From Bolinopsis microptera (lineage: Eukaryota > Ctenophora > Tentaculata > Lobata > Bolinopsidae): 64,000 bases of DNA. The stretch covers positions 12,403,113 through 12,467,112 of the forward strand of contig NC_087081.1 in assembly GCF_026151205.1 (NCBI RefSeq), read 5' to 3'. Below are positions 21,273 through 57,081 of the stretch, one piece after another. Positions within the stretch are counted from its first letter, which is position 1, and each line of letters starts with the position of its first letter. The notes beneath the pieces are model-generated. The model was not told where the DNA came from. It saw only the letters and a list, made by a program, of their open reading frames with translations, and did no database searches. The translations under genes and the position numbers were made by a program.

Positions 21273-21955
21273 TTACTGTCCGGGGTGTCCTCGGTGTCCG
21301 TGGTGGTGGTGTGGGTGTGGGTGTGGGTGTGGGTGTGGGTGTGGGTGTGGGTGGTGACGGCGGGCCCTAGCGGCAGCAGCCCTCTTAGCAGCAGCTCTCT
21401 TAGCAGCAGTCCTCTTAGCAGCAGCCCTCTTAGCAGCAGCCCTTTTAGCAGCAGCACGTTTCCTTTTAAGAGCAGCAGCCCTTTTAGCAGCAGCACGTTT
21501 CCTTTTAAGAGCAGCAGCCCTCTTAGCAGCAGCCCTTTTAGCAGCAGCCTTCTTAGCAGCAGCACGTTTCCTTTTAAGAGCAGCAGCTTTTTTAGCAGCA
21601 GCCCTCTTAGCAGCAGCCCTCTTAGCAGCAGCACGTTTCTTTTTAAGAGCAGCAGCCTTTTTAGCAGCAGCCCTCTTAGCAGCAGCACGTGGGTTTCCGC
21701 GGTGTGGGTGTGGATGTGGGTGTGGGTGTGGGTGTGGATGTGGGTGGTGTCGGTGGTGTGGGTTTTCAGCTTCTGAAATAAGAAATTATTTTAAAATAAT
21801 GTATATGCTACATTATAATGATACACAATTTACATTTTACCAACGACATTAATTCCAATTGAATAAAAAATTTATGTTCATATTTTCTTACCTTCAGTTG
21901 CAGTAGCGGAGTACAGAACAGCAGCGGTGACTAGGAAAAGCAGGAATACCTTCAT
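21273..21955 (-). CDS. Secreted His-rich / Ala-Lys-Arg repeat protein, copy 1
   Basis: Two coding exons: 21955-21892 (64 nt, ending G|GTAAG) and 21772-21273 (after TTTCAG). The 119-bp intron is phase 1. The joined frame is open for 187 aa. Residues 1-19 (MKVFLLFLVTAAVLYSATA) form a textbook signal peptide. Residues ~24-45 are His-rich with a (His-Pro) run. Residues ~51-162 are AAAKR units interrupted by AAALKRKR/AAALKKKR. Residues 163-187 are again (His-Pro)n ending GHRGHPGQ. Predicted role: secreted, strongly cationic, pH- and metal-responsive matrix or defence protein; this is inference. KR pairs could be convertase sites. It differs from copy 2 mainly by the number of AAAKR units. Ala is coded almost only by GCT. 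The ATG is fixed by its identity in all four paralogues. Confidence 0.85.
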
Positions 21956-22036
21956 CTTGTAAGTTTGAACCGGCGCTTAAACGTTATCAATATCAAATAA
22001 TATTAGTAAATAATTATGTTTCACTGCGATGGTCCA

Positions 22037-22045
22037 TTATTTATA
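22037..22045 (-). promoter_or_regulatory. TATA box of gene copy 1
   Basis: TATAAATAA, read on the minus strand, lies about 82 bp before the ATG, inside CTTATAAATAATGGACC, which is shared with copies 2 and 3. The upstream CCGGAAG site present in the other three genes is missing here: the promoter runs from GTTAAATGTTTATAAAAGTC straight to the TATA region. Confidence 0.7.
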
Positions 22046-22311
22046 AGTTTATAGGTGGTTGGAATCATGAAAATTGATTCTGAGGGAGACTTTTATAAAC
22101 ATTTAACATTGCTATTTGTATACTGCTATTTTTAATACTCATTGTACTTGCAAGATTATACACTCGCAATACAAACCCCAAAATCGTCCTATATTTAGGT
22201 GCCTAAAAAACCACTTTAAACTTAAATATAATTATGAACTAGCGAATTAGCGAATTAGCGAGTCAAGAGAGCAAACTTACATCAATTGTTCCGAGCCTCA
22301 GTCAACATCAT

Positions 22312-22860
22312 GTGATCAAACAGTTCTTCCCCAACATCCCCCAGGTCACATGCCACCAACATTTCATCAATACCTTCCCCCTCATCATCACCAACAGCCG
22401 CACCCGATCCAGCAGACAACGAACTGGCATCAACTTCCCGTGTCTGGCTGTTAAATGTACAATCTTTCAACCCTAGCGCTTCAAGTACATCTAAGTGGAA
22501 GGTCTCATATCTAGCCCAACAACTCGCCGAAGAACACGCAAAACATCATTGTGTCCCATTTGTTGTCCTAATAGAGACCTGGCTGAAGTCCTATAGGCTA
22601 TATTCTTATATTGAAGATGCACAACTTGAAATTCCTGGATATTCACTGTTCAGAAGTGATAGAAACGCTAGGGTTGGCGGGGGAGTTCTACTCTATTCAC
22701 ATGACCAACTCCCCATAACTCATGTTGAAACATATGATGAACAAATATGCCAAGCTCTTATCTGCAAATGTGAACTGACAAAATCTATTATCTGCGTGCT
22801 CTACCGTCCACCTAACTGTTCAGTAGTCTTGATTTCCTTGATAACTACATTGCAGGCGAA
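22312..22860 (+). pseudogene. CR1-like LINE fragment: N-terminal endonuclease domain
   Basis: A continuous plus-strand frame begins in a Ser/Pro-rich stretch (to about 22440). It continues VWLLNVQSFNPSA, then FVVLIETWLKS, LEIPGYSLFRSDRNARVGGG and IICVLYRPPN. Known: 'lN.rS', 'TETWL', 'GY...R.DR..r.GGGv..Y' and 'v.YRPP' are the ordered blocks of the CR1/L2-type LINE endonuclease; here Thr of TETWL is Ile. The frame fails after 22860. It begins at the tip of the left inverted-repeat arm. A LINE C-terminus of compatible type lies at the other arm tip (35245-35735, opposite strand). Confidence 0.75.
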
Positions 22861-23155
22861 CTTCACGAAGGCCAACGCACTTAACAACTTTTAAAACAAA
22901 AGATATCCTACTTCACAGACAATTCTAAAATTTGGACGAGAACAATCAACAATGTTTTGAAGTTTTTGGAAATTTTGAAAATGTTTTATATCCTGTCACT
23001 TGACCATAATTTAAATCGATAAAAAGTATTTTATTAAGGAGCATCATATCTCTTAAATTCATTATTCTTATTTGGCACTGAGGATTGGTATTGTTTTCTA
23101 CATATCATGAAACTGATCGTTTGTCCGCCAATTTGAGTGTTTCTCTTCGTTTGAA

Positions 23156-23490
23156 ATATTTGAGCAAAACCCATAATCATGGGTAGAGTGTACCGCTGCC
23201 AGTGTCTCTCTTTTCCAAACAAAAGGAAATGATATTAATTTGAATAACCGTCCGAAAATGCAAATTGATACCGAGAATGAAATCGGTCGCTCGCTTTTTC
23301 CATTCGATCACGGCTAACGAATTGTAATATAAAGCTTATTGATTGGAAAAAGCGAGCGACCGATTTCATTCTCGGTATCAATTTGCATTTTCGGACGGTT
23401 ATTCAAATTAATATCATTTCCTTTTGTTTGGAAAAGAGAGACACTGGCAGCGGTACACTCTACCCATGATTATGGGTTTTGGTCAAATAT
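23156..23490. repeat. Perfect-type hairpin, 147-bp arms, 41-bp loop
   Basis: Arms 23156-23302 and 23344-23490 are inverse copies with almost no mismatch (for example GCAAATTGATACCGAGAATG versus CATTCTCGGTATCAATTTGC). The outer edge carries CAAAACCCATAATCATGGGT. The same edge occurs as a shorter hairpin at 26436-26518. It is probably the terminal module of a foldback element. Confidence 0.9.
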
Positions 23491-24465: not shown

Positions 24466-24468
<3 letters not shown>

Positions 24469-30139: not shown

Positions 30140-33100
30140 ATTAGTCATGGATCTGACGACATTCCCGTCTATATAACTTCCGCCCCGGGGTTTGAGACTT
30201 GGAATACCTCAAGGGACCCATTAGAAACAAATATGGCTTGGGTAGAAATTTTGGCTATGGGGCAGTTTTGCGCAATTGACCACGCCCTTTTTTGGTGCTT
30301 TTGCAACTTTAGAATCAAAATAACTCCGCTTCTAATTGGAATTAGAAGCTCAGCTTGGCTTTAAAGTTGTTTAGAATCATCACATTTAGGGGGGTAGAGC
30401 ATAACTTTAACGTCAACAGACATCGGGTTGTTGAGTTATGTGACCACACCCTTATTTACCCTCGCGAGTCTTGATTTTCACACTAAATACGAGATATCTC
30501 GGCTTCTGATTGAGCTACGTGCTCATCCTGGGCATTAAAATGTTCAGAATCATCACATTGAGTAGGGTAGACCACAATTTCAAAGTCCTCAGATGTCAGG
30601 TTGTTGAGTTATTAGGCCCCAACCTGTTTTTACGCTCTCGCGGGTAGCGATTGCAGCGCTTAAAATCAAAATAACTCAGCTTCCAATTGAAGTTAGGAGC
30701 AAAACTCGGGCAGCAAAATGTTCACAATCATCACATTGAGTGGGGTAGAACGTAGTTTCAAAGTCCTCAGACGTCAGGTTGTTGAGTTATTAGGCCCACA
30801 CCATTATATTTACGCTCTCGCGAGTAGCGAGTCGACACTTAAAATCAAAATAACTCGGCTTCTGATTAGAGTTAGGAACTAAACTTGGGCATAAAAATGT
30901 TCAGAATCATCGCATTGAGTAGGGTAGACCACAATTTCAAAGTCCTCAGATGTCAGGTTGTTGAGTTATTAGGCCCTAACCTGTTTTTACGCTCTCGCGG
31001 GTAGCGATTGCAGCGCTTAAAATCAAAATAACTCAGCTTCCAATTGAAGTTGGGAGCAAAACTCGGGCAGCAAAATGTTCACAATCATCACATTGAGTGG
31101 GGTAGAACGTAGTTTAAAAGTCCTCAGACGTCAGGTTGTTGAGTTATTAGGCCCACACCATAATATTTACGCTCTCGCGAGTCGCGAGTCGACACTTAAA
31201 ATCAAAATAACTCGGCTTCTGATTAGAGTTAGGAACTAAACTTGGGCATACAAATGTTCAGAATCATCGCATTGAGTGGGATAGAACGTAGTTTCAAAGT
31301 CCTCAGACGTCAGGTTGTTGAGTTATTAGGCGGAACCCTGTAGGGTGAGAATCCCTGCCACGTTTTTGGTCAGTTTCGCCGGGGCTCATGTCTTTCCTCG
31401 AGGGAGCATTAGTGTCTACAGAAAAACTGACAAATCCTAGCGAAGTCCAATCCGAACCACATCTTCCATCAGAGGTGGTGCTGGGTCAGCTGGTTACTGA
31501 ACGGATTGGCCTGGAGAATGGCATAGTCCTGTTACTCTCAAGTTAACCATAGAGGGGGACAGGCGCTGTTCGCTCACGGCTGGTTCTTGGAGCCAACACC
31601 CTCAGCCCCACATAAGTGGGAGCACTGTCGGTGGTGGCTCACCCAGATAACGGACAGTGTCTCTCCTTCTTTCTTCTTGGACTTGCATTGTTGCTGGCGA
31701 GTCAGCCAGTAGCAATGCAGCATCTCACTCACTCAATCACCTCGTCAATTCGGTCCTTTTTTTCATTTGCATTACTTTCGCTCATTCTCCTGTCATAATG
31801 CATTCTCTGCTACCATAATGCCTTTCTTACCACGGTGTAACGCATGTTACACCTTGCGTCTTTCTCTAACACCATCATCATTTCAGCAACCTTGGAATTT
31901 CAACCCTACACAGGTACACAGCACTATGGATATCCACTCTCCACTCTACGGCGAACACAAAGCTAGAGATCTAGGATTCGAGTACCCCGGCTACCCTTGT
32001 GACATACATACGTGGAAACCAGTTTAAGCAGCAGTACATCAACACAATGGATCAGCACTACGAAATCTGATATCTGCATCATACTACTCCGATCCAGAAA
32101 TCTTCGCTAAACCATCACATGAGATGAATAACTACAAGTTGGACTCCACATAACATTATTCCTTGTTCTGATCAGTCAATAAATGTAATCTGCATCAATT
32201 TTCCAATAATTACATCTTCTTACTAGTTTATTTTCCCTCTCAGGGCTGGAACGCAATGTTACAGCCCACTTTATAAATTACTAAAACTCGAGTTATTCCA
32301 GATTGACGACTTGACACAGATATTCATCAGACAACCTAAATAAAGGACTCCCACTCTCCAAACCAGTAGAGATCCAATCACTGCCTCCAGGGTACCCCTT
32401 CATCCGGTATTAGCAGTTCCTCCACCACCACCAGGTTAGAACACTCCCACCAATCACCCCTAAAAAACGAACCTACCGCCTTGCTCCACCAAACACAACT
32501 TCAATCAAATCCAGTTACTCAAACCGGTTAAATCCGTCCTTCAAATTTCCCGCATTAAACGTAACGCGCGAACGCCATACAACTCAAGGACGTAGCAACC
32601 TAATAGTCGTCATTTTTTAAACAGAAAATTTAGTGCGCGCGCGAGCCTGCGCGCGCGCGAGCTTACGACTAATCCACGAGATTACGACAAATCCACATAA
32701 TTGAAACGTTCCATCACTCCAGGTTGATCTGATTAGTAAACTCAAGGAAGATGATACCAGATCAGTCCCGAACTTTGCCTCAGCATCATACTCTGCCTAG
32801 TGTCGATAAAGAGGATTCACATACAATCGAGATTCACTTACAAATATTTGCTATTACTTTTTACAATTGCAGTTATATTCGTTGTTTTAATTATCTCCAT
32901 CAACCTTGAATCTGCCCATACTACATTCCCAAAATTATCTTAGCGCTCTTTCATCGTCAAACCCCACTAGTTCACTACATACGCCAACCAATAAACCTCA
33001 ATTAGGATGGTTTTTGCAACACATTCTACAAGCTTAGAACTTCTAAAGTAATAGCACCATCATAACCCACACATTACCTTCGCACAAATCAGCTATTCCC

Positions 33101-35250
33101 CATTCACTCACGAGCGTCGACATATCTCCGCATGTACATCTGTAAACTGGAGCGGCCCCCCGCGATGCGGAGCAGGTGAGCTACCTGGTTCGGGCTACTT
33201 CACTTATCAGAGTACGCTAGCTCCACAATACACTCGCTTCAAGCCCTCAGATTTGCATGCATCCATCACCTTCACAGGGCCGGCTGCCCACATCCTGTAA
33301 AATCCTGATTCTATATGCTCGCGGGGTCTATTACCTGTTTGAGCTCTATTATTACGCGCGCGTGCCCAGTGTACAGCTCACCGGCTTGCGCTGTCCTCTT
33401 GGCATTGTCGTCGCCTTTATGACCTTCAAATCTAAAAGTAGGTTGAGGGCACTACATGGGGTCTAGCGCTGCCCCGTGTCAAAATACATACATACATACA
33501 TACATACATAGGCGGAACCCTATTTTTACGCTCTCGCGAGTCGCGAGTCGACACTTAAAATCAAGATAACTCGGTTCCTGATTAGAGTTAGGAACAAAAC
33601 TTGGGCATGGAATGATGGAAATGTTCAGAATTATCATATTAAGTGGGGTAGAACATGGTTTCAAAGTTCTCAGGCGTCAGGTTGTTGAGTTATTAGGCGG
33701 AACCCTATTTTTATGCTCTCGCGAGTCGCTAGTTGACACCTAAAATCAAAATAACTCGGCTTCTGATTAGAGTAAGGAACTAAACTTGGGCTCAAACGTG
33801 TTCAGAATCATCACATTGAGTGGGATAGAACTTAGTTTCAAAGTCCTCAGACGTCAGGTTGTTGAGTTATTAGGCCCACACCATAATATTTACTCTCTCG
33901 CAAGTCGCGAGTCGACACTTAAAATCAAAATAACTCGGCTTCTGATTAGAGTTAGGAACTAAACTTTGGCATAAAAATGTTCACTCTAACTCTAATCAGG
34001 AGCAGAGTTATTTTGATTTTAAGCATAGAATCACTACTTGCGAGAGCGTAAAAATAGGGTTCCGCCTAATAACTTAACAACCTGACGTCTGAAGACTTTG
34101 AAACCACGTTCTACCCCACTCAATATGATAATTCCGAACATTTCCATGGCCAATTTTTGTTCCTAACTCTAATCAGGAACCGAGTTATCTTGATTTTAAG
34201 TGTCGACTCGCGAGAGCGTAAAAATAGGGTTCCGCCTAATAACTCAACAACCTGACGTCTGAGGACTTTGAAACTACGTTCTACCCACTCAATATGATAA
34301 TTCTGAACATTTCCATCATTCCATGCCCAAGTTTTGTTCCTAACTCTAATCAGGAACCGAGTTATCTTGATTTTAAGTGTGGACTTGCGACTCGCGAGAG
34401 CGTAAAAATAGGGTTCCGCCTAATAACTCAACAACCTGACGTCTGAGGACTTTGAAACTACGTTCTATCCCACTCAATGCGATGATTTTGAACATTTTAT
34501 GCCCAAGTTTAGTTCCTAACTCTAATCAGAAGCCGAGTTATTTTGATTTTAAGTGTCGACTCGCGACTCGCGAGAGCATAAATATTATGGTGTGGGGCTA
34601 ATAACTCAACAACCTGACGTCTGAGGACTTTGAAACTACGTTCTACCCCACTCAATGTGATGATTGTGAACATTTTGCTGCCCGAGTTTTGCTCCTAACT
34701 TCAATTGGAAGCTGAGTTATTTTGATTTTAAGCGCTGCAATCGCTACCCGCGAGAGCGTAAAAACAGGTTGGGGCCTAATAACTCAACAACCTGACATCT
34801 GAGGACTTTGAAATTGTGGTCTACCCTACTCAATGTGATGATTCTGAACATTTTAATGCCCAGGATGAGCACGTAGCTCAATCAGAAGCCGAGATATCTC
34901 GTATTTAGTGTGAAAATCACGACTCGCGAGGGTAAATAAGGGTGTGGTCACATAACTCAACAACCCGATGTCTGTTGACGTTAAAGTTATGCTCTACCCC
35001 CCTAAATGTGATGATTCTGAACAACTTTAAAGCCAAGCTGAGCTTCTAATTCCAATTAGAAGCGGAGTTATTTTGATTCTAAAGTTGCAAAAGCACCAAA
35101 AAAGGGCGTGGTCAATTGCGCAAAACTGCCCCATAGCCAAAATTTCTACCCAAGCCATATTTGTTTCTAATGGGTCCCTTGAGGTATTCCAAGTCTCAAA
35201 CCCCGGGGCGGAAGTTATATAGACGGGAATGTCGTCAGATCCTTGACTAT
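30140..35250. mobile_element. Foldback element with arms of tandem ~178-bp units
   Basis: The left end (..GGATCTGACGACATTCCC from about 30150) is mirrored at the right end (..GTCGTCAGATCC to about 35250), including CTATATAACTTCCGCCCCGG. Each arm is a row of ~178-bp units with the landmark CAGGTTGTTGAGTTATTAGG (30423, 30600, 30778, 30955, 31133 and 31313 on +; inverse copies about every 180 bp from 34065 to 34965). Units carry CTCTCGCGAG and AAAATCAAAATAACTCGGCT. Three further units in plus orientation lie at 33509-33977, and the orientation flips at about 33978. The core is replaced by the insertion 31340-33508. No transposase was seen. Confidence 0.8.
31340..33508 (+). mobile_element. 2.17-kb retro-insertion with 13-bp target duplication and (CATA)n tail
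   Basis: The insertion splits a 178-bp unit. TAGGCGGAACCCT is present on both sides (31327-31339 and 33509-33521), and the insert ends in AAAATA(CATA)n at 33483-33508. Target duplication plus simple-repeat tail indicates target-primed reverse transcription on the plus strand. The insert holds no RT motifs. It has short open pieces, one at 31767-32027 with PLYGEHKARDLGFEYPG following a pyrimidine tract and CAG, which I do not recognise. It may be a non-autonomous LINE derivative or a retrocopied transcript. Confidence 0.7.
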
Positions 35251-35735
35251 ATAGGGCCATCGAAAAAGTCGACCCCCCGGACAGTGTAGAAACTGTTTTA
35301 TCACCACTCCAATCCAGCAAGGAGTTTCCATTCCGACGGCTGTATCCTGGAGCTGGAGGCTCGTCCGGAAATGACTTCACGAAGTTCGTTAAAGCTGCTT
35401 TGAATTGCATAGGATCCTCGATGGTGTGCATATGTGTTGGGATTACATTCCATAATCGAGGTCCAGTAACTGCAAATGAGTTGTCATGTAGTGCTTGATT
35501 ACGTTGACTGCTGGACTTAGCTATACTGGGCACAACTGCTTTTTGACCATGTCTGAGAGTCACCGAGAACTGGATACCAATATCATTAGGGCACTTGCAA
35601 TGCAGAACTTTACACATGTTGATGATTAAATATCGTTCTCTTCTTCTTTGCAATGACATCAGATCTAGGGCCTTTAATCTCTGCCAGTAGTTGAGGTGCT
35701 GGGTGCCATCTACTTTCGATGTGAACGTACGATGT
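35245..35735 (-). pseudogene. LINE reverse transcriptase C-terminal fragment
   Basis: The minus-strand frame includes MSLQRRRERYLIINMCKVLH, NDIGIQFSVTLRHGQK, LHDNSFAVTGPRLWNVIPTH and FKAALTNFVKSFPDEPPAPGY. Known: 'Y.RLk.L.l.SLqrRReRY.iiymwKil', 'sfavrGprlWN.lP' and 'FK..LD.FL..iPD.P' mark the C-terminal end of CR1/Rex-type LINE ORF2. The open frame continues to 35027 only because it runs into the foldback end. It stops at the right inverted-repeat arm tip (35735). Confidence 0.8.
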
Positions 35736-35980
35736 AAGTTTGCTCTCTTGACTCGCTAATTCGCTAATTCGCTAGTTCATAATTATATTTAACTTTAAGT
35801 TTAAAGTGGTTTTTTAGGCACCTAAATATAGGACGATTTTGGGGTTTGTATTGCGAGTGTATAATCTTGCAAGTACAATGAGTATTAAAAATAGCAGTAT
35901 ACAAATAGCAATGTTAAATGTTTATGTACAACTATACATTATACAGTATACTACCTGCTCTTTGCTCAATTCATCAGTTC

Positions 35981-35987
35981 CCGGAAG
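35981..35987 (+). promoter_or_regulatory. ETS-like site upstream of gene copy 2
   Basis: CCGGAAG within AGTTCCCGGAAGGAAAAAAG. The same block is at 42644-42650 (copy 3) and, inverted, 57213-57219 (copy 4). Its spacing to the TATA box varies (24, 64 and 42 bp). Function is inferred only from conservation and the match to the ETS consensus. Confidence 0.45.
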
Positions 35988-36010
35988 GAAAAAAGTATCA
36001 CCTATAAACT

Positions 36011-36019
36011 TATAAATAA
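36011..36019 (+). promoter_or_regulatory. TATA box of gene copy 2
   Basis: TATAAATAA lies 82 bp before the ATG in a block (ATGGACCATCGCAGTGAAAC) conserved with copy 1 and nearly so with 3 and 4. Initiation is expected about 30 bp downstream, near 36045. Confidence 0.7.
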
Positions 36020-36100
36020 TGGACCATCGCAGTGAAACATCATTATTTACTAATATTATTTGATATTGATAACGTTTAAGCGCCGGTTCAAACTTACAAG

Positions 36101-36816
36101 ATGAAGGTATTCCTGCTTTTCCTAGTCACCGCCGCTGTTCTGTACTCCGCTACTGCAACTGAAGGTAAGAAAATATGAACGTAAATTTTTTATTCAATTG
36201 GAATTAATGTCGTTGGTAAAATGTAAATTGTGTATCATTATAATGTAGCATATACATTATTTTAAAATAATTTCTTATTTCAGAAGCTGAAAACCCACAC
36301 CACCGACACCACCCACATCCACACCCACATCCACACCCACATCCACACCCACACCGCGGAAACCCACGTGCTGCTGCTAAGAGGGCTGCTGCTAAAAAGG
36401 CTGCTGCTCTTAAAAAGAAACGTGCTGCTGCTAAGAGGGCTGCTGCTAAGAGGGCTGCTGCTAAAAAAGCTGCTGCTCTTAAAAGGAAACGTGCTGCTGC
36501 TAAGAAGGCTGCTGCTAAAAGGGCTGCTGCTAAGAGGGCTGCTGCTCTTAAAAGGAAACGTGCTGCTGCTAAAAGGGCTGCTGCTCTTAAAAGGAAACGT
36601 GCTGCTGCTAAAAGGGCTGCTGCTAAGAGGGCTGCTGCTAAGAGGGCTGCTGCTAAGAGGGCTGCTGCTAAGAGGGCTGCTGCTAAGAGGGCTGCTGCTA
36701 AGAGAGCTGCTGCTAAGAGGGCTGCTGCCGCTAGGGCCCGCCGTCACCACCCACACCCACACCCACACCCACACCCACACCACCACCACGGACACCGAGG
36801 ACACCCCGGACAGTAA
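36101..36816 (+). CDS. Secreted His-rich / Ala-Lys-Arg repeat protein, copy 2
   Basis: Exons 36101-36164 and 36284-36816 with a 119-bp GT..AG intron in phase 1. The joined frame is 198 aa. Residues 1-19 are the signal peptide and cleavage is likely around 19-21. Residues 26-45 read PHHRHH followed by seven His-Pro pairs. Residues 51-177 are the core: about 15 AAAKR/AAAKK units plus five AAALK(R/K)KR units. Residues 178-197 are (His-Pro)n and His clusters, ending GHPGQ. There are no Cys and almost no acidic residues after position 24. The core should be highly positive and helix-prone, the flanks metal- or proton-binding. The 15-bp DNA unit (GCTGCTGCTAAGAGG) explains copy-number change against copy 1. 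Candidate roles, by analogy only: silaffin-like mineral scaffold, antimicrobial peptide precursor, metal binder. A signal peptide argues against histone or protamine. Confidence 0.88.
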
Positions 36817-37278
36817 GAACAGTAAGAACATAACGAAACTACAAAGGACAAGACAACGACTGAGGATAACAACACTCTACCGTTGTACTTTACTCGAGAT
36901 GATGGAACACTTACATTTTCATTTATAAACTTTTTGTGGCATATCTGTATGTTTATACTTATAGTCATTTGAGATTGTAAAATAAGCTGTTCAAACATTA
37001 TGCATTAAATATTTTGTGTCTTACTTGTCATTTTCGCCCTTGAATTTAGCCATAATCCAATTAATAATATCATATGATCACACAGCGTTATTAATTTTGT
37101 TTATGAACCACCGCAAAAGTAATGGTAAACTTTGATCACACGCATTTTTAGATCGGAGCAATAAAAAACATGTTATTGATTGCAGTCGTATTTTGGAAGG
37201 TCTTAATACTTTCAACATCAAAGATTTATCCATAAGCGCACTCAAAACACAAATAGTCATGTTTACCTGGAATAAGAA

Positions 37279-39055
37279 ATGGACACTATGGTGGTGGGTA
37301 ACACCACTATAGGTCTATCCAAATCTGCCAAATTCCTAGGAGTGACCCTCGACAGCAAGCTCAATTTCAATGAACATATCACCAATACCACCAAAAAAGC
37401 TACGGCATCCCTTATGCAATGTAGAAGAGCTGTCGGCCCCACTTGGGGTATGAGCCCCAAAACATGCAAATGGATGTACACCGCTGTCATCAGACCTATT
37501 CTATCATACTGTTGTAGTATATAGATTAGGGCAACCCAAACAGCTACACCAACGCGAGGAAGTTCAAACGAGTTCAGGCATTGGCATTGAGAATGATGTC
37601 TGGTGCCATGACTAGTACTCCCTTCATCGCACTGAACCACCCCACTAACACTCCAGATATCATACTTTTCCTGAGAGGTGAAGCAGCAAAGGGCACTGCC
37701 AGGCTTCAAGCCTATGGTAGCCTAACCCTCGAATCTATCGCCCCCAGAAAAGGTACCATCACAACTCCCACCACTATCAACAAACAATTCATGGTAGACC
37801 TCAACATACCACCCAAAGAAGAGAGAGACCTATCTATACCAACCATGATGCTTGAACGACCCTTCACGGTCACCACACCTGGAGCTGACAACATTGAATA
37901 TAGAGGCTCACTTTAAAACACCATCGACAAAATCCCCAGTGAAACGGTCACCTGCTACACAGACGGGTCACGCACAGACTCAGGTAGCGGGGCTGGTTAT
38001 ATTATCACCACTGACAACAACAACACTACACTAGAGGAAAGATCATTCAAGCTTCCCGATTATTGCACCGTTTATCAAACAGAACTCACTGCCATCATCG
38101 AAGCTTGTAAATATCTATCTACTTATACCAACACGCACATCATCATATGGTCAGACAGTCTCTCCTCTATTCAAGCTATATCCTCACCCTCAACGAGGAG
38201 TAGAACTACTAGAGACTGTTACGACACCCTCAATACACTCGGATCCACTAACACCTTAGAGATTAGATGGATAGCAGCACACATCGGATTGTGGGGTAAT
38301 GAAAAAGCAGATGAGCTGGCCAAAAACGGCACAACCAGTAAATCCACTTTGAAGTGCCCAATTCCACAATCTTACATCAAACGCCTGATCGACGACAAAG
38401 TCACCAAAGCTTAATCAAGAATCATGGATTACTGATGGTCCCAGACACACTAAACTGACACTTGGACACAAAAACATCAACATCATCAAAAATCTCAACA
38501 CTACACTCAGTAACAACAAACAAAATTACAGAACTGCAATGCACCTCATCACGGGTCATTGTGGCATCAACAAACACCTACACACCATTCGCAAACCAGA
38601 CACAAGTGGTTGTCCTAAATGCGGCGACGAATAGGATACTGTCTCACACTTTCTCGGACAGTGCCCGGCTATTGCCCAAACAAGAGGTCAATATTTCCGG
38701 GACTGCTACCTCTCTGTCAATGACATATTTGACAACCAACACATCTCCACCATTGTCAACTTTGCAAACCACACTTAACGCTTAATGGTGCCAGAGGAGT
38801 TGGACCAGACCGGTGTAACATAGCGACTACTCAAACACCGTCTTATTTTGCCTCTCTCTTCCACACTCTACCAACACTTAAGCGTTCATCTATGACACAC
38901 CCCACAACACTTACCATCATCCTTGATTACACATCTTGATTCCACCGGCATCCTCCCACAGGACTGCCATACCCCGGAGGTAGGCAAAGCATCCATATGC
39001 TATCCTCTCGTGGGCCAACCAGGCCCAGCCTCTCTAAAAATTTAAATTAAAAAAA
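37279..39055 (+). pseudogene. LINE (I/Jockey-like) 3' half: RT thumb, RNase H, Cys/His tail, 3' end
   Basis: Open pieces in order. 37279-37500 reads FLGVTLDSKLNFNEH and WGMSPKTCKWMYTAVIRPIL. 37581-37916 is the RT-RNase H connector. 37925-38410 is RNase H with CYTDGSRTDSGSGAGY, YQTELTAIIEACKYL, IIWSDSLSSIQAI and GNEKADELAKNG, so the D-E-D catalytic residues are visible; AHIGLWGNE replaces the usual GHxGxxGNE. 38530-38780 holds the CPKCGDE..HFLGQCP-type tail with a TAG inside. The 3' end (ACGAGAGGATAGCAT..GGCCCAGCCTCTCT) closes with an A-rich tail at 39040-39055. Several stops make it inactive. The same 3' end occurs at 45285-45440 (-). Confidence 0.85.
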
Positions 39056-39400
39056 GGGGGGGGGGGGGGGGCAAAAGTCAGTGTACATACGTTTGCTCTT
39101 ATATAATTATAACCACGGCCGTGATTTATATTTGAGACTTGTTGCTTTGCAGATGACATACCGTACTTTAACTTAAACGAATTCGAGGATTCTGTCGCCA
39201 AAATTTGAAAATTCGAATATTTTAGACCACATCCATTCAATACTAAATCACTTATATTGTTTTTTCCAAACATGCTGGACGCCCCATTTTTCACAATAAT
39301 GTAGATCTTAATTGATGCATCTGATCTGAAAAAACAAATGATGCGAAACGGATTTGAAATAACAAAGTTATCAAGCATTTTGTTTATCTTGATTGGATTA
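39056..39400. other. Arm segment between two converging LINE pieces
   Basis: A run of 16 G (39056-39071), then the inverse of 18995-19300 with an open minus-strand frame of about 100 residues. It is conserved between the arms but not recognised. Confidence 0.3.
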
Positions 39401-39429
39401 TGTTACCCCTGGGGTTAAGTACTTGATCC

Positions 39430-41157
39430 CTGCTTACTCTCCCGCTAGTTTTTGGATTTCATCTGGTTCAGTGTTAGAGTAATCTTCTTCAAAGTCGAAG
39501 TTGGTATTTCCAGTACGAGCATTCAGGTCACCCACTAGCAAGATCTTGCCAAGATCGGGGTTTTGAGCTTTGAAATCAAGGAGGTGCTCTAAAGTTGTCA
39601 TGTAAGGGGATCCATTTCTAGCCTTGCGTTTTGATTTGTACGACGACTGCTCTGGTGAGTCGTAGACATTGATGATGGTGAACCTGTTTTCCATATCATT
39701 TGGATAGAAAGTAATAGCTTGGAGGTCATCAGGTCAGGGCAATTTGTTTTGACTAGCTTTATTTGTTTTGAAATTGAGCGATGTACCCCGATACAAATTC
39801 CACCCGATCGAGAGGCTTTTCTTGTGCTGTTGAAGCACTCATAGTTGGGGAGAAAATAGTCCTATTTGGTTTCTTGTAGGCAAAAACACTGCTTTGTGCC
39901 AGGATGTTGACAAAGTCACTGTATTCCATTTTGGGCCATACAAGATTTTGTAGTTTGCAATGAGGTCTTTTGGGGTGATTTTGTTTTTATTCAAATCTTC
40001 CAGTCCAGCGTGAATATAAATAAGGTCTAATTTTAGATTTCGCGCCTTGGAGATCAGCCCATCTCGACTGAGAATACTGCTGATAGACTTCACTTTATGT
40101 CGATCAATGTACTTGTAGAAAGGTGATGTGAACTTCGAACTCGCAAAGTCTTCGAAAAAGTGATTATGCACTAATAAACATTTTCGTTTGTTATCAGTTG
40201 CGGTGTTTTCTCTTTTCTGCGCTTTTCAATCAGTGTCCCTGTGTCCAACCCTGTCCAGCATTGTTCTCTGTTATGCCTATGGCTCGATCAGTTCTTTCTG
40301 TTTCATTTACAGGAATTTCAGAAGCACAGCCGATTTGAGGGTTGGTTCCATTCGTTGTTCCACGTGGCATTGAGTTCATTTTGATAGTGATATCAAATTT
40401 TTCTGGGTCTGGCATCCAAGTCTCAGTAGATAGAAGTTGATTGACATGGTGGTATGTTCTCGGGCCATAGTTGATGGGGAATTTTAATGAAGCCGCCCGA
40501 CTATGTTAGCTCGGAATAACGAGTATAGGTTTAGGTGGAGAGCAGAGTATGAACTTTTGGTCTGTTACAACCTCGACGTGATCTGACACGTCAATTTTAT
40601 CTGAGTTTATCACAACCCCAAAGGCCAATTCCACTATACTGAATGTTCGAATCCAACTCCCATGGTGGGCTCTTTTACTATACGTGTGTTCACTGTCAAT
40701 TATGGTTCTCTGGACCCTTTTGGTCCTAAGAGCAGCTTGCACAAGTTCTGGGATTTCTGCAATACGCTCTTTCATTTAATTTATTTCATCTTTCATCTAA
40801 GTCAGCTGCAGTAGAGTTCTTTGGTGGACTTTTATTGTTTGCAGCAGAGTGTGCATCTGGCTTCTGAGCTCACTTAACTCTGTACCTGCTTACCTGACAG
40901 AGACAAACGCTCGTTTTCGCGATTTTCACGTGGCCTTGATCTTTTTCTTGAAGGAGCCTGATTTGCTCTTCTTGACAAGAGACATTATTTTGGATCTTCA
41001 ACAAACTCGTTCCCAAGGTTTTTAGTGGTTTCATGAGCTCAGTGCCCGGAAATACTGGAGTATTTTGAGAGCGTGGGGCTTTTCCAGTCTTTGTTTTTTT
41101 TACAGTTAGCTTTATCCTTGGTATTTTTAAAAAATGTCTTCTTACTCTTCTTTTCAA
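39430..41157 (-). pseudogene. LINE 5' half: coiled-coil ORF1-like region and endonuclease (right-arm copy)
   Basis: Minus strand. 41157-40870 is basic (MKRRVRRHFLK) and then has a heptad-like stretch, CQEEQIRLLQEKDQ. 40775-40506 (MKERIAEIPELVQAAL) continues the helical character. 40415-40230 holds MNSMPRGTTNGTNPQIG. 40171-39839 holds SISSILSRDGLISKARN and FACK/RNQIGLFSP in shifted frames. 39694-39434 is the endonuclease core with NVYDSPEQSSYKSK and VGDLNARTG. Known: LINE ORF1 proteins often start with a coiled coil. Assigning 40.5-41.2 kb to ORF1 is inference. Inactive, and it lacks the endonuclease C-terminus. Confidence 0.65.
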
Positions 41158-41455: not shown

Positions 41456-41479
41456 GGTCCTTAAAATATTGTTATTTGA

Positions 41480-42502
<1,023 letters not shown>

Positions 42503-42793: not shown

Positions 42794-43570
42794 ATGAAGG
42801 TATTCCTGCTTTTCCTAGTCACCGCCGCTGTTCTGTACTCCGCTACTGCAATTGAAGGTAAGAAAATATGAACGTACATTTTTTATTCAATCGGAATTAA
42901 TTTCGTTGGTACAATGTAAATTTTGTATCATTAATGTAGCATATACATTATTTTAAACTAATTTCTTATTTCAGAAGATATATACAACCCCCACCCCCAA
43001 CCACACCACCCACCCCCACACCCACAGCCAAACCCAGCTGCTGCACGTGCTGCTGCTGCTAAGAAGGCTGCTGCTGCTGCTGCTGTAAAGAAGGCTGCTG
43101 CTGCTGCTGCTGCTAAAAAGGCTGCTGCTGCTGCTGCTGCAAAGAAGGCTGCTGCTGCTGCTGCTGCTAAAAAGGCTGCTGCTGCTGCTGCTGCAAAGAA
43201 GGCTGCTGCTGCTGCTGCTGCAAAGAAGGCTGCTGCTGCTGCTGCTGCTAAAAAGGCTGCTGCTGCGAAGGCTGCTGCTGCTGCGAAGGCTGCTGCCGCT
43301 AAGAAGGCTGCTGATCTTAAAAAGAAAATTGAAGCTGCTGCTAAGGCTGCTGCTGCTAAAAAGGCTGCTGCTGCTAAGGCTGCTGCTGCTAAGGCTGCTG
43401 CTGCTAAGGCTGCTGCTGCTAAGGCTGCTGCTGCTAAGGCTGCTGCTGCTAAGGCTGCTGCTGCTAAGGCTGCTGCTGCTAAAGCTGCTGCTGCTAAGGC
43501 TGCTGCTGCTTCGAGGGCCCGTCAACACCCTCACCCACACCCACACCCACCCCCTCACCACGGACAGTAA
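42794..43570 (+). CDS. Secreted His/Pro-rich / Ala-Lys repeat protein, copy 3 (diverged)
   Basis: Exons 42794-42857 and 42975-43570, intron 117 bp in phase 1. Joined frame 219 aa, open. The signal peptide is the same as the paralogues (T20 is Ile here). Residues ~22-42 read EDIYNPHPQPHHPPPHPQPN, so Pro/Gln-enriched. The core (~43-200) has almost no Arg. It has about seven A7KK units (9 residues, 27 bp), then a break ADLKKKIEAAAK, then about eleven AAAAK units. The C-terminus has (His-Pro)n, PPPHHGQ. The shift from KR/RKR to KK/K with longer Ala runs lowers charge density and removes dibasic KR sites. A frame preserved through wholesale core replacement suggests selection. Its 3' flank was split by the LINE 43777-45079, so the ancestral downstream sequence resumes at 45093. 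Confidence 0.87.
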
Positions 43571-43776
43571 GAACAGTAAGAACATAACGAAACTACAAAG
43601 GACAAGACAACGACTAAGGATAACAACACTCTACCGTTGTACTTTATTCGAGATGAAGGAACACTTACATTTTCATTTGTCAAATTTTTGTGGCATACTG
43701 TATGTTTATATTAATTTAAGATTGTGAAGTAAGCTGTTCAAACATTATACATTGAATTTTGTGTGTTTTACTTGTC

Positions 43777-52083: not shown

Positions 52084-55000
52084 ACACCCTTGAATCTGAC
52101 CTCTAGCTCGCCATTGTTGAGATTCAAGCAAATCGAGGATGTTCAAAGAGTGCAGGATGTTCAATAAACACTTTCTGTAGATGTCTCTGAGGTACTATTC
52201 AAAACCAGGTACCTTCGTAGAAATTGGCCATCTTAGTCACTTTTAATAATTTATACAAGTGACCAAGATGGTCTCTTCACTGTTTTGTACAATGTGTGAC
52301 GTGTGGATTAATTTTCTTATTTTACTGCATTTTGTAAGTGTTATATTTAGAGCTATTATTTATCCACTGTCAAAACAGAACAGTTTACGATCCCTGATAG
52401 ACTTTTAAAATAAGAGCCGATGTACACAAACTTAAGTTCTTAATCACAATGCTGGCAAGCATGAGGCCGTTGCCATTATATTCACAGTATTAATATAGCT
52501 ATTAGATTTAGTATTATTAATTATATACATATAATATATATACATATATGTACATATATATTATATACTTATAACTACTATAATATATGATAGCTATTAT
52601 TATATATAGATACTAGAAAGCCCGTGGTAACAGGGACGAAGCTAGTAGTATTCTTTGAAAGAAAGTTTTAATCGCATCAAAAAATATCCATATCAACCGA
52701 AGATACAGCCGATTTAAATATAAAACACTTTAAACACAACGTAATTACCACAAAACCGATCAAAATGACGTTAAAACAACCTTTGCACGTGAATGTGTGC
52801 ATTAAAACACCGTTGCTATGGAACCTTTTGGTTGTTAATTAAATTCCTATTTTTCATCTAATTTGCACGTGGGCGGTCGTACAGACATACAGACAGAAAT
52901 AATTCTCTGAATTATAGTAGAGATTAGCTATTACATATTAATGGTTGCTTTTGGGCAGTTTGTGCCTTAACCGTGCCTTAACCGTGCGTTAACCGTGCGT
53001 TAACCGTGCCTTAAGAACCGTGCCTTATGTAACCCTTGTGCCTTAACCGTGCCTTAACCGTGCCTTAACCGTGCCTTAACTGTGCCTTAACCGTGCCTTA
53101 TAACCGTGCGTTAACCGTGTTATTGAATCTGACCTCTAGCTCGCCATTGTTGAGATTCAAGCAAATCGAGGATGTTCAAAGAGTGCAGGATGTTCAATAA
53201 ACACTTTCTGTAGATGTCTCTGAGGTACTATTCAAAACCAGGTACCTTCGTAGAAATTGGCCATCTTAGTCACTTTTAATAATTTATACAAGTGACCAAG
53301 ATGGTCTCTTCACTGTTTTGAACAACATGTGTGACGTGTGGATTAATTTTCTTATTTTACTGCATTTTGTAATTGTTGTATTTAGAGCTATTATTTATCC
53401 ACTGTCAAAACAGAACAGTTTACGATCCCTGATAGACTTTTAAAATAAGAGCCGATGTACACAAACTTAAGTTCTTAATCACAATGCTGGCAAGCATGAG
53501 GCCGTTGCCATTATATTCACAGTATTAATATAGCTATTAGTATTATTAATTATATACATATAATATATATACATATATGTACATATATATTATATACTTA
53601 TAACTACTATAATATATGATAGCTATTATTATATATAGATATTAGCTATTACATATTAATGGTTGCTTTTGGGCAGTTTGTGCCTTAACCGTGCCTTAAC
53701 CGTGCCGTTAACCGTGCGTAACATGCGTTAACCGTGCCTTAAGAACCGTGCCTTATGTAACCCTTGTGCCTTAACCGTGCCTTAACCGTGCCTTAACCGT
53801 GCCTTAACTGTGCCTTAACCGTGCCTTATAACCGTGCGTTAACCGTGTTATTGAATCTGACCTCTAGCTCGCCATTGTTGAGATTCAAGCAAATCGAGGA
53901 TGTTCAAAGAGTGCAGGATGTTCAATAAACACTTTCTGTAGATGTCTCTGAGGTACTATTCAAAACCAGGTACCTTCGTAGAAATTGGCCATCTTGGTCA
54001 CTTTTAATAATTTATACAAGTGACCAAGATGGTCTCTTCACTGTTTTGAACAACATGTGTGACGTGTGGATTAATTTTCTTATTTTACTGCATTTTGTAA
54101 GTGTTGTATTTAGAGCTATTATTTATCCACTGTCAAAACAGAACAGTTTACGATCCCTGATAGACTTTTAAAATAAGAGCCGATGTACACAAACTTAAGT
54201 TCTTAATCACAATGCTGGCAAGCATGAGGCCGTTGCCATTATATTCACAGTATTAATATAGCTATTAGTATTATTAATTATATACATATAATATATATAC
54301 ATATATGTACATATATATTATATACTTATAACTACTATAATATATGATAGCTATTATTATATATAGATATTAGCTATTACATATTAATGGTTGCTTTTGG
54401 GCAGTTTGTGCCTTAACCGTGCCTTAACCGTGCCTTAACCGTGCGTTAACCGTGCCTTAAGAACCGTGCCTTATGTAACCCTTGTGCCTTAACCGTGCCT
54501 TAACCGTGCCTTAACCGTGCCTTAACTGTGCCTTAACCGTGCCTTATAACCGTGCGTTAACCGTGTTATTGAATCTGACCTCTAGCTCGCCATTGTTGAG
54601 ATTCAAGCAAATCGAGGATGTTCAAAGAGTGCAGGATGTTCAATAAACACTTTCTGTAGATGTCTCTGAGGTACTATTCAAAACCAGGTACCTTCGTAGA
54701 AATTGGCCATCTTAGTCACTTTTAATAATTTATACAAGTGACCAAGATGGTCTCTTCACTGTTTTGAACAACATGTGTGACGTGTGGATTAATTTTCTTA
54801 TTTTACTGCATTTTGTAATTGTTGTATTTAGAGCTATTATTTATCCACTGTCAAAACAGAACAGTTTACGATCCCTGATAGACTTTTAAAATAAGAGCCG
54901 ATGTACACAAACTTAAGTTCTTAATCACAATGCTGGCAAGCATGAGGCCGTTGCCATTATATTCACAGTATTAATATAGCTATTAGTATTATTAATTATA

Positions 55001-55305
55001 TACATATAATATATATACATATATGTACATATATATTATATACTTATAACTACTATAATATATGATAGCTATTATTATATATAGATATTAGCTATTACAT
55101 ATTAATGGTTGCTTTTGGGCAGTTTGTGCCTTAACCGTGCCTTAACCGTGCCTTAACCGTGCGTTAACCGTGCCTTAACCATGCGTTAACCGTGCCTTAA
55201 GAACCGTGCCTTATGTAACCCTTGTGCCTTAACCGGGCCTTAACCGTGCCTTAACCGTGCCTTAACTGTGCCTTAACCGTGCCTTAACCGTGCGTTAACC
55301 GTGTT
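52084..55305. repeat. Four-copy tandem array, ~720-bp unit with internal 11-bp minisatellite
   Basis: TGAATCTGACCTCTAGCTCG marks units at 52090, 53124, 53852 and 54570. Spacings are 1033 bp (with an insertion), 728 and 718 bp. Each unit contains AGGTACCTTCGTAGAAATTG, the Z-related GTGTGACGTGTGGATTAATT, CAATGCTGGCAAGCATGAGG, an AT-palindromic stretch (TATATACATATATGTACATA) and a block of about 12-16 GTGCCTTAACC repeats (52966-53120, 53678-53848, 54408-54566 and 55126-55304). Confidence 0.95.
52612..52925. mobile_element. ~313-bp insertion in the first array unit
   Basis: Present only in the first unit. The other three read ATATATAGATATTAGCTATT straight across. The insert starts CTAGAAAGCCCGTGGTAACA and ends CAGACAGAAATAATTCTCTG then TATAGTAGAGAT. 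This 'ACTAG..CCCG ... ACAGACAGACAG ... TAGTAGAGAT' layout is common in short non-autonomous invertebrate elements. Class (SINE-like or Helitron-like) is unresolved. Confidence 0.65.
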
Positions 55306-55712
55306 ATGCCGCGCCGCACTACTGAATTGCCGCCGAATGGCTTGTAAAGTTAACACTGAAATGCAGGACCGCCGGACCGGGGTAGTTTGATAAAAAAAAA
55401 GGTTTCCATAAAGCTAGAAATCACTGATGCTTTAAGCATGGACTATTTCATGCACGAAAACCCATTTGACAAAGATGATACGTGATATTAGACACTGATC
55501 ATGTACACATATTTTAACATTTTTACCGCTTAACGACTGCTTTTCTTACTTATACTGTATAAAAAATGGATTTAAAAATTATTTGCTGAAATAAAAAAAC
55601 GTCGGATTTTTGATGGTTTTGAATGCCTTCTAGTGTTCATATTAATGTCCGACGTCCGTTCATAATTATTTTCGTTCATTTAATGTCCGTCCAAATAAGG
55701 TCCGATAAAGTA
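55306..55712. repeat. Spacer and inverted partial copy of the GTCCG TIR element
   Basis: 55420-55712 matches, inverted, the left half of 57322-58139: shared GCTTTAAGCATGGACTATTT versus CCCATGCTTAAAGTTAAAGC, and the end ATGTCCGTCCAAATAAGGTC then CGATAAAG. Gene copy 4 therefore lies between two facing ends of the same element family. 55306-55420 is a short GC-rich spacer. Confidence 0.65.
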
Positions 55713-55724
55713 AGTCTATCAGTA

Positions 55725-55975
55725 CTTTTATTCAAATTTCTGATTGTTTCTGAATAGACTCAGTGAAGACAAATTCTTAATCTCAATAAATTTAATAGAT
55801 TTGTAGTGTTGTACTTGTAATTAGTTTAAACTAATTACAACACTACACATTTATTACATTTATTGAGAATATGAGTATGACGTAGAAATGTCGATACGTT
55901 ATTCAGCTATTTATTTCCATTAGAATTTGTCTTCGCTGAGTCTATTCAGAAAAAATTCAGAAATTTGAATAAAAG
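55725..55975. mobile_element. Full-length hairpin MITE (~251 bp)
   Basis: It is almost entirely an inverted repeat. The left end CTTTTATTCAAATTTCTGA is mirrored by the right end CAGAAATTTGAATAAAAG. GACTCAGTGAAGACAAATTC is mirrored by GAATTTGTCTTCGCTGAGTC. The centre is the perfect palindrome AATTAGTTTAAACTAATT near 55828. Half-copies lie at about 1215-1375 and 1765-1925. Confidence 0.85.
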
Positions 55976-56336
55976 AACTATCAAATCACGAGACTCAATA
56001 ACACTACACGAATCCACCAGATTAGTCTGTCAGTAGTTATAGTCGAAGGAGTTCGAAGGGAATAACGCAGTGTGATCGATGATCATATGATATTATTTGA
56101 ATTATGGATATAAATTCAAGGGCGAAAATGACAAGTAAGACACACAAAATTCAATGCATAATGTTTGAACAGCTTACTTCACAATCTCAAATGAATATAA
56201 ACATACAGATATGCCACAAAAAGTTGACAAATGAAAATGTAAGTGTTCCATCATATCGAGTAAAGTACAACGGTAGAGTGTTGTTATTCTCAATCGTTGT
56301 ATTGTCCTTTGTAGTTTCGTTATGTTCTTACTGTTC

Positions 56337-57081
56337 TTACTGTCCTCGGCGTCCGTGGTGTCCGTGATGGTGGTGATGGTGGTGGTGTGGGTGATGGTGG
56401 TGACGGTGTCCGTGATGGTGGTGACGGTGTCCGTGGTGTCTTCTAGCCCTCCTAACAGCGGCAGCGCGTGCAGCAGCACGTCTCTTAGCGGCAGCAGCAC
56501 GTTTCCTAGCAGCAGCACGTTTCCTAGCAAGAGCAGCACGTCTCTTAGCGGCAGCAGCACGTTTCCTAGCAGCAGCAGCAGCACGTTTCCTAGCAAGAGC
56601 AGCACGTCTCTTAGCGGCAGCAGCACGTTTCCTAGCAGCAGCAGCAGCACGTTTCCTAGCAGCAGCAGCACGTCTCTTAGCAGCAGCAGCACGTTTCCTA
56701 GCAGCAGCTACTCTCCTAGCAGCAGCAGCACGTGCACGGTTGAGACGGTGGTGTTGGTGATGGTGATGGCGATGGTGTGGGTGTGGGTGATGGTGATGGT
56801 GATGGCGAGGGCGACGGTGATGGTGATGGTGGTGGAAGTCGTCAACTTCTGAAATAAGACACGTTTAAAATTATGTATTATATGCTATATATATATATGC
56901 TACATTAATGATACAAAATTTATATTTCCGGAATGAACCGTAGTTCTGAATTGATCAATATTTTATCAAAGAAATAATTTCCAATTGAATAAAACATCTA
57001 CGTTCATATTTTCTTACCTTCAGTTGCAGTAGCGGAGTACAGAACAGCGGCGGTGACTAGGAAAAGCAGGAATACCTTCAT
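56337..57081 (-). CDS. Secreted poly-His / Ala-Lys-Arg repeat protein, copy 4
   Basis: Exons 57081-57018 (64 nt) and 56848-56337, intron 169 bp in phase 1. Joined frame 191 aa, open. The signal peptide matches the other copies. The mature start EVDDF is followed by six His, RRPR, six His, and mixed His/Pro/Arg to about residue 55. The core (~60-150) alternates RKRAAAA and KRRAA(A/L)A, so it is the most Arg-rich member. The C-terminus has HHHHGHRHHHH clusters with few Pro, ending HHGRRGQ. His-Pro dipeptides of copies 1-3 are thus replaced by poly-His here. RKR and KRR are strong basic motifs (convertase- or nucleic-acid-binding-like), but the signal peptide indicates secretion. 3' flank words (TACAACGGTAGAGTGTTGTT) are shared with copy 1. 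The function suggestion is as for copy 2 and is inference. Confidence 0.87.

What the first reader, a model, noticed from the sequence alone, without database searches (positions are those of the whole stretch)
21273..57081. Undescribed four-member family of secreted His-rich / Ala-Lys-Arg repeat proteins
Seen: four genes (21273-21955 -, 36101-36816 +, 42794-43570 +, 56337-57081 -) share an identical 64-nt signal-peptide exon, a phase-1 intron at the same codon, a His-rich N block, an Ala/basic core, a His-rich C block and a terminal GQ. All four stay in frame over 187-219 codons although the cores are built from different repeat units. Inference: lineage-specific secreted polycationic proteins. 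Candidate roles are mineral or matrix scaffolding (silaffin/glassin-like chemistry), host defence, or metal binding. I know of no named family with this architecture.
Basis: partly seen in the sequence, partly recalled or inferred. Interest (0 to 1): 0.88.

Follow-up and report, generated by a model that had tools for sequence, protein, structure and literature searches.

The report
Comb-jelly secreted cationic repeat proteins
A comb jelly carries a small family of genes for secreted, strongly positively charged repeat proteins that match no known family; they probably work by sticking to negatively charged slime, surfaces or microbes, but no expression or activity has been shown.

Summary
All four window genes have a 64-nt signal-peptide exon, a phase-1 intron, a His block, an Ala/basic core, a second His block and a terminal GQ. 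The exon is nearly, not fully, identical. 'Four-member' is wrong: the genome holds at least nine intact genes on three chromosomes and three broken or partial copies.

The organism is a ctenophore (photoprotein ORF closest to berovin and mnemiopsin), very probably Bolinopsis microptera (assembly size). Ctenophores are not silica builders (recalled), so the silaffin/glassin lead loses its context.

C13 and C8 members add an acidic piece; the shortest is signal, acidic piece and short basic tail. AlphaFold2 predicts one long helix in both of the two products modelled (113 and 213 residues).

My reading: a lineage-restricted secreted polycation that binds anionic mucus, glycans or microbes, with pH-sensitive His ends. 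Purifying selection is suggested on the signal exon but not shown in the cores. Two of nine genes also look like repeated amidated-peptide precursors. Expression is unknown.

The parts
21892..21955 (-). Gene 1 exon 1, signal peptide, ends in phase 1
21773..21891 (-). Gene 1 intron, 119 nt, GTAAGA..TTTCAG
21273..21772 (-). Gene 1 exon 2: His block, AAAKR/ALKKKR core, His block, GQ stop (187-residue protein)
36101..36164 (+). Gene 2 exon 1, signal peptide
36165..36283 (+). Gene 2 intron, 119 nt
36284..36816 (+). Gene 2 exon 2, near copy of gene 1 with in-frame repeat-number differences (198 residues)
42794..42857 (+). Gene 3 exon 1, signal peptide
42858..42974 (+). Gene 3 intron, 117 nt
42975..43570 (+). 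Gene 3 exon 2: Pro/His block, Ala-Lys core, His block, GQ stop (219 residues)
57018..57081 (-). Gene 4 exon 1, signal peptide
56849..57017 (-). Gene 4 intron, 169 nt
56337..56848 (-). Gene 4 exon 2: His block, Ala-Arg-Lys core, His block, GQ stop (191 residues)
36011..36017 (+). TATAAAT 90 nt upstream of the gene 2 ATG; the same at -90 in genes 1, 3 and 4
18180..22283 (.). Arm of the inverted duplication that holds gene 1
35731..40488 (.). Arm of the inverted duplication that holds gene 2

Best explanation
A family of secreted polycations of a ctenophore. A conserved signal peptide (shown as sequence; secretion inferred) would send the chain into secretory granules. In the C13 and C8 members an acidic piece follows and may mask the basic part until release (inferred). 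The basic part has been built up by tandem repeats of different units in different copies into Ala/Lys/Arg/His cores. The two cores modelled are predicted as one long helix, and over short windows most cores spread their charge round the helix instead of on one face. The ends are His-rich blocks, charged in an acidic granule and nearly neutral in seawater at about pH 8 (general His chemistry, recalled; inferred here). I think the released protein works as a multivalent cationic rod that binds and cross-links anionic polymers and surfaces (mucin glycans, sulphated polysaccharide, nucleic acid, microbial envelopes), the His ends adding a pH switch and metal sites. The likeliest setting is a gland, mucus or adhesive-cell secretion used in capture or surface protection.
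For: Nine of nine intact genes keep the 64-nt (70-nt in C8) signal exon, phase-1 intron, GTAA donor and TTTCAG acceptor. Exon 1 is more conserved than its flanks in the three C10-C13 pairs measured, e.g. W1 against C13_6050: 80% in exon 1, 65% upstream, 75% intron, 73% 3' UTR. Exon 1 dN/dS is 0.15-0.28 in five C10-C13 pairs; Fisher tests on three of them give p = 0.002, 0.06 and 0.11. Eight of nine mature chains have net charge +34 to +123 without His, and 0 of 9 have Cys after the signal. The translated frame is the most basic of six in 7 of 8 repeat cores; 4 of 4 exon-2 indels between two young duplicate pairs are multiples of 3. AF2 without an alignment: helices 27-139 and 41-253 in the two exon-2 products modelled. 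Mean 18-residue hydrophobic moment is below at least 192 of 200 shuffles in 6 of 7 cores tested. TATAAA 90-112 nt upstream of the ATG in 8 of 9 genes. Ctenophore host.
Against: No transcript, peptide or tissue data. Within the cores pN (0.096) exceeds pS (0.046), p = 0.0003 in that direction; units of unequal length confound this, but residue-level selection is not shown. One C13-C13 exon-1 pair gives dN/dS 0.91, and C8 against the others about 0.5. Exon 1 is not more conserved than its flanks in the C8-C13_6050 pair (78% against 87, 80 and 82%). Taken over the whole core, the moment of gene 4 and of C13_8351 is not unusual (79 and 93 of 200 shuffles as high or higher), and the HRRHGRKHRRA core is strongly one-sided (0.74, above 200 of 200). 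Even charge spread follows largely from repeat periods of 5 and 10, so it need not be selected. The C8 chain has no long core and net charge -4. The chains have almost no aromatics, unlike squid beak proteins, in which Tyr takes part in phase separation (abstract and passages of PMC6884462). [quoted passage not shown]
Confidence: 0.4

Rival explanations
1. Host-defence precursors: the acidic piece keeps the basic part inactive, and the released basic chain or its fragments kill or trap microbes, as in bipartite Hydra antimicrobial peptides.
For: Signal, acidic piece, basic part in the five C13 and C8 genes. Several paralogues, four of them clustered here. Hydra AMPs are described as bipartite in charge, multi-paralogue, clustered and restricted to the lineage (passages of PMC10945409).
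Against: 0 Cys after the signal in 9 of 9, whereas most Hydra AMPs are described with a Cys pattern. Acidic piece almost lost in the four window genes. Low short-window helical moment in 6 of 7 cores speaks against a membrane-lytic amphipathic helix. A search on ctenophore AMPs listed one Mnemiopsis peptide paper, whose passages show nothing like this.
Confidence: 0.25
2. Neuropeptide-type precursors: the many dibasic sites are cut to release repeated short peptides. This fits best for the two HRRHGRKHRRA genes, where each unit holds a Gly followed by two basic residues, the usual amidation-and-cleavage signal (recalled).
For: G[KR][KR] occurs 11 and 9 times in C13_4980 and C13_5065; dibasic pairs are frequent in the eight repeat proteins (12 to 44). 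Bolinopsis mikado neuropeptide precursors use basic and acidic cleavage sites and Gly as amide donor (passages of PMC9525235).
Against: G[KR][KR] occurs 0 times in six of the other seven genes and once in gene 4. Cutting at all dibasic sites of the Ala cores would leave mostly tri- to octapeptides of Ala and basic residues. Sequences of known ctenophore precursors were not compared.
Confidence: 0.1
3. Metal-binding or metal-cross-linked structural proteins: the His blocks bind Zn or Cu and join chains into a hard or sticky material; the basic core is a spacer.
For: His is 5-26% of the mature chain in the eight repeat proteins, mostly in blocks or HP repeats at the ends in six of them.
Against: The His blocks vary a lot and are nearly absent from the C8 gene (one His, 2% of the mature chain); no metal evidence; no aromatic residues for other cross-links.
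Confidence: 0.12
4. Weakly constrained or decaying copies: the signal exon was kept by recent duplication, the cores are minisatellites that happen to be open, and the proteins have little function.
For: Cores show no residue-level constraint; 3 or 4 of 6 frames open in each core; two copies share a tail in a shifted frame; broken copies exist.
Against: Nine intact genes across three chromosomes, with exon 1 diverged mostly at synonymous sites between C10 and C13, conserved splice sites and frame-keeping indels.
Confidence: 0.12
5. Silica or other mineral scaffold (silaffin/glassin-like).
For: Polycationic and His-rich composition.
Against: The host is a ctenophore, not a silica builder (recalled).
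Confidence: 0.01

Closest known systems
Hydra antimicrobial peptide families (arminins, periculins)
   Same: Secreted, clustered paralogues, signal followed by acidic and basic parts (compare C8 and C13 members; passages of PMC10945409)
   Different: Ours are Cys-free after the signal, mostly long, repeat-built and His-rich; no arminin or periculin sequence was compared
Glassin and perisilin of glass sponges
   Same: Secreted, with His-rich stretches
   Different: Host is not a silica builder (recalled); nothing like the Cys-rich CAP-like domain described for perisilin or the Asp-rich stretches described for glassin (passages of PMC10772126); sequences not compared
Silaffins of diatoms (recalled, no call)
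   Same: Signal, acidic stretch, Lys/Arg-rich repeats
   Different: Different organism and use; not compared by sequence
Squid histidine-rich beak proteins
   Same: Secreted His-rich repeats; possible pH switch
   Different: Squid proteins depend on GHGLY-type repeats with Tyr (abstract and passages of PMC6884462); one Tyr in our nine mature chains
Histone H1-like proteins HC2 (PF07382) and NF038053
   Same: Ala/Lys-rich basic composition, weak hits
   Different: Below curated cut-offs, 13.6 of 40 and 22.8 of 80 bits; ours carry a signal peptide
Ctenophore neuropeptide precursors
   Same: Signal peptide and many dibasic sites; Gly-basic-basic in each unit of two of nine genes
   Different: No such repeated unit in the other seven; sequences not compared

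Membership tests
Hydra-type AMP family | Signal peptide with bipartite acidic/basic charge | tested here: inconclusive
   Met in the five C13 and C8 genes (5 to 11 acidic residues in the first 30 after the signal); only 3 or 4 in the four window genes
Hydra-type AMP family | Cys pattern described for most Hydra AMPs | tested here: not met
   0 Cys after the signal in 9 of 9
Hydra-type AMP family | Antimicrobial activity | not testable with these tools
   No assay available
Glassin / perisilin | Found in silica of glass sponges | tested here: not met
   Photoprotein ORF best matches berovin and mnemiopsin; assembly size fits B. microptera
Glassin / perisilin | Sequence homology | not tested
   No glassin or perisilin sequence was fetched
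H1-like proteins (PF07382, NF038053) | Score above curated cut-off | tested here: not met
   13.6 against 40 and 22.8 against 80 bits for gene 1
PF25296 Decapeptide repeat region | Score above curated cut-off | tested here: not met
   C13_6050 only, E 1.8e-6 but 28.1 against 45 bits
Squid His-rich beak proteins | Tyr-containing GHGLY-type repeats | tested here: not met
   One Tyr in nine mature chains; motif
Neuropeptide precursor | Repeated Gly-basic-basic processing signal | tested here: inconclusive
   Present in each unit of C13_4980 (11) and C13_5065 (9), once in gene 4, absent in six of nine
Neuropeptide precursor | Mature peptides or neuronal expression | not testable with these tools
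   No peptidome or transcriptome available

The most novel reading that the evidence does not exclude
A ctenophore invention in which a small signal-acidic-basic gene like the C8 one was turned, several times in one genome, into long secreted cationic rods with His-rich pH-sensitive ends: the repeat sequence is free to change while charge and composition are kept, giving a composition-conserved family of structural polycations for mucus or glue.
Probability: 0.2. Interest if true: 0.72.

Novelty: new variant of a known kind. Interest (0 to 1): 0.5.

Why it matters
[quoted passage not shown] A family of nine or more genes with a constant secretion exon and a freely rebuilt cationic core gives direct, testable candidates. 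It is also a natural case of different tandem-repeat units reaching similar charge and composition. If the chains prove to bind mucin or microbes with a pH switch, they would be useful models for polycationic materials that work in seawater.

Tried and rejected
Silica scaffold: dropped once the host proved to be a ctenophore. I first suspected a sponge and looked for silicatein: the Peptidase_C1 search gave 154 matches (150 of 281 candidates scored); of 30 loci fetched, the active-site motif was found in 26, and one of these had Ser in place of Cys, with no other sign of silicatein.

Gene 3 carried by a TIR transposon: it lies between inverted copies at 41478-42244 and 43775-44535, but these read as LINE 3' ends (RNase H-like reading, recalled) and a further copy lies at about 58423-59089, so I take them for separate insertions.

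Codon test for purifying selection in the cores: it went the other way.

Pfam (7 of 9 proteins), NCBIfam (2 of 9) and PDB sequence (1 of 9) searches: no member. Exon-1 pattern in viral contigs: 0 matches (records near the window's genome may be left out there). No fold search was run, since a lone helix matches very many structures.

Prior description: searches (0 papers) listed no paper that by title or abstract describes this family; I read passages of some listed papers only. The published B. microptera annotation was not available to check.
Full report
What is there. The four window genes are real as sequence features. Each has a 64-nt exon coding MKVFLLFLVTAAVLYSATA(T/I)E, a phase-1 intron of 117-169 nt with GTAAGA and TTTCAG ends, and one second exon that runs open to a GQ stop; the proteins have 187, 198, 219 and 191 residues. 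The exon is nearly identical: genes 2 and 4 agree, genes 1 and 3 differ from them by one base each. Genes 1 and 2 lie on the two arms of a recent inverted duplication, about 18180-22283 and 35731-40488, pieces 95-97% identical. Their second exons differ by indels of 45 and 12 nt and by two bases.

The family is larger than four. Searches of the whole genome with the 5' part, the 3' UTR, the signal peptide and a degenerate exon-1 pattern, seeded from C10, C13 and C8 copies, return the same nine full genes: four in the window, four on C13 (4.98, 5.07, 6.05 and 8.35 Mb) and one on C8 (6.17 Mb). The tool scores best candidates only, so nine is a lower bound. All nine keep exon size (64 nt, 70 nt in C8), intron phase, GTAA donor and TTTCAG acceptor. 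Three further places are broken or partial: at C10:12.01 Mb the exon-1 match covers only its last part and the core is interrupted by a reading that looks like a LINE reverse transcriptase (motif recalled); C13:6.04 Mb keeps a 3' end (translated); C10:11.99 Mb is a degenerate 5' piece in a poor-looking stretch. I described these and mended none. The two C13 copies at 4.98 and 5.07 Mb stop in one frame while a stretch like the tail of their C13 relatives (HRRGD) lies in another, so their C-termini differ.

The organism. The genome has 264,652,675 bases in 232 contigs; C1 has 26,206,493 bases. One ORF of a tandem array matches berovin (E 9e-120) and mnemiopsin 1 (E 1e-118), photoproteins of ctenophores (recalled), far above obelin (E 1e-18). 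Table 1 of PMC11797021 (passages) gives Bolinopsis microptera as 265 Mb, 13 chromosomes, largest 26.2 Mb; PMC10232365 (passages) describes 13 chromosome-scale scaffolds. I infer B. microptera; the table gives 346 scaffolds, not 232, so the version may differ.

Anatomy beyond the window. The five C13 and C8 members carry 5 to 11 acidic residues in the first 30 after the signal, the window genes 3 or 4. The C8 protein has only 63 residues: signal, acidic piece, and a short tail RMRHRTRRRRSGE. The cores are built of different units: AAAKR and ALKKKR (genes 1, 2), AAAAK-type (gene 3), AAAARKR-type (gene 4), HRRHGRKHRRA (C13 4.98 and 5.07), AARKAL-type (C13 8.35), RAKRARAKRL (C13 6.05). Composition is alike in the eight repeat proteins: K+R 38 to 134 residues, D+E 2 to 11, no Cys, aromatics (W, F, Y) 0 to 3. 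The last two residues are GQ in the four C10 genes, GD in two C13 genes, GR in two, GE on C8.

Is it coding and kept? For: exon 1 is more conserved than its flanks in the three C10-C13 pairs measured, with dN/dS 0.15-0.28 in five C10-C13 comparisons; Fisher p values for three of these are 0.002, 0.06 and 0.11, on 21 codons. The translated frame is the most basic of six in 7 of 8 cores; in gene 3 another frame is slightly more basic but has a stop. Four of four exon-2 indels in two young duplicate pairs are multiples of three; the repeat units themselves are multiples of three, so this is weak. TATAAA sits 90-112 nt upstream of the ATG in 8 of 9 genes and is missing in C13_8351. Against: one C13-C13 exon-1 pair gives 0.91 and the C8 pairs about 0.5; in the C8-C13_6050 pair exon 1 is less conserved than its flanks; the within-core comparison finds more nonsynonymous than synonymous difference (0.096 and 0.046, p = 0.0003 in that direction). 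My pairing of units was crude, but residue-level selection in the cores is not shown. Open frames alone mean little, as 3 or 4 of 6 are stop-free in each core.

Structure. AlphaFold2 on exon-2 products without an alignment predicts one helix of 113 residues for gene 1 and of 213 for C13_6050, with lower-confidence coil at the ends. Two of nine proteins were modelled, and low-complexity Ala/Lys/Arg sequence is readily called helix, so this is a tendency. The mean 18-residue hydrophobic moment is below at least 192 of 200 shuffles in 6 of 7 cores tested; the HRRHGRKHRRA core is the exception, above all 200. Over the whole core the effect is weaker: 187, 194, 162, 79, 93 and 197 of 200 shuffles are as high or higher for genes 1-4, C13_8351 and C13_6050 (C13_5065 left out as a near duplicate of C13_4980).

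Function. I take the most likely role to be a secreted multivalent polycation that binds anionic polymers and surfaces, with pH-sensitive His ends. Shown: gene structure, composition, predicted helix, short-window charge spread. Inferred: secretion, masking by the acidic piece, pH switch, binding partners, cell type. In layout the nearest analogy is the Hydra AMP precursor (passages of PMC10945409); in chemistry, His-rich pH-responsive marine proteins (abstract and passages of PMC6884462), although the lack of Tyr argues against the same self-coacervation. Colloblast glue is possible, but the published candidate set was not enriched for low complexity (passages of PMC6278862). The two HRRHGRKHRRA genes also hold a Gly-Arg-Lys in each unit (11 and 9), which fits repeated amidated peptides; six of the other seven genes have none and gene 4 has one. 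The family may thus have more than one use.

Known families. Pfam (7 of 9 proteins), NCBIfam (2 of 9) and PDB sequences (1 of 9) give no match above cut-off; the weak hits are to basic or repetitive families and look composition-driven. The best of them, C13_6050 to PF25296, has E 1.8e-6 but 28.1 of 45 bits. My literature searches listed no description of this family. I could not search other ctenophore genomes or any transcriptome, so 'lineage-restricted' rests on the absence of family matches and not on a cross-species test.

Noticed in passing
window 6683-14024: Satellite array, unit about 230 bp (also read as 463 bp), 95-97% matches, about 30 copies in three blocks.
   Followed up: no
window 30309-31331 and 33509-35082: Tandem arrays of a unit of about 178/355 bp, in part inverted to each other.
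   Followed up: no
window 42223-42498: (GA)138 microsatellite, 99% matches, upstream of gene 3 and next to a LINE-like fragment.
   Followed up: partly
window 41478-42244, 43775-44535 and about 58423-59089: Copies of a LINE-like 3' end; the first two flank gene 3 in inverted orientation, 91.5% identical.
   Followed up: partly
window 52522-55303: Four blocks of a 25-bp AT-rich repeat followed by an 11-bp GTGCCTTAACC minisatellite, 718-1029 bp apart.
   Followed up: no
G000 C13:11082760-11094295, C1:21999721-22006881, C5:17013039-17026356, C3:3415799-3427318: Tandem arrays of EF-hand ORFs about 1 kb apart; the one C1 copy tested matches berovin and mnemiopsin.
   Followed up: partly
G000, many contigs: 154 Peptidase_C1 matches, many in long single open frames: a large, apparently intron-poor papain-type family.
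   Followed up: no
L035 and L036 (C13:8.35 and 6.05 Mb genes): C-termini end RGD and KGD, like integrin-binding motifs (recalled); may be chance.
   Followed up: no
L033 and L034 (C13:4.98 and 5.07 Mb genes): The 33-nt unit is also open in the next frame (LTADTGVNTEG), where a family-like tail HRRGD follows.
   Followed up: partly
L069, roughly 1000-1701 (+ strand): Low-complexity Pro/Thr/Tyr-rich reading frames near the 3' remnant of the family.
   Followed up: no
L013 (C10:11991287-11994446): Run-rich, low-quality-looking stretch round a degenerate exon-1 match; possibly an assembly problem.
   Followed up: no
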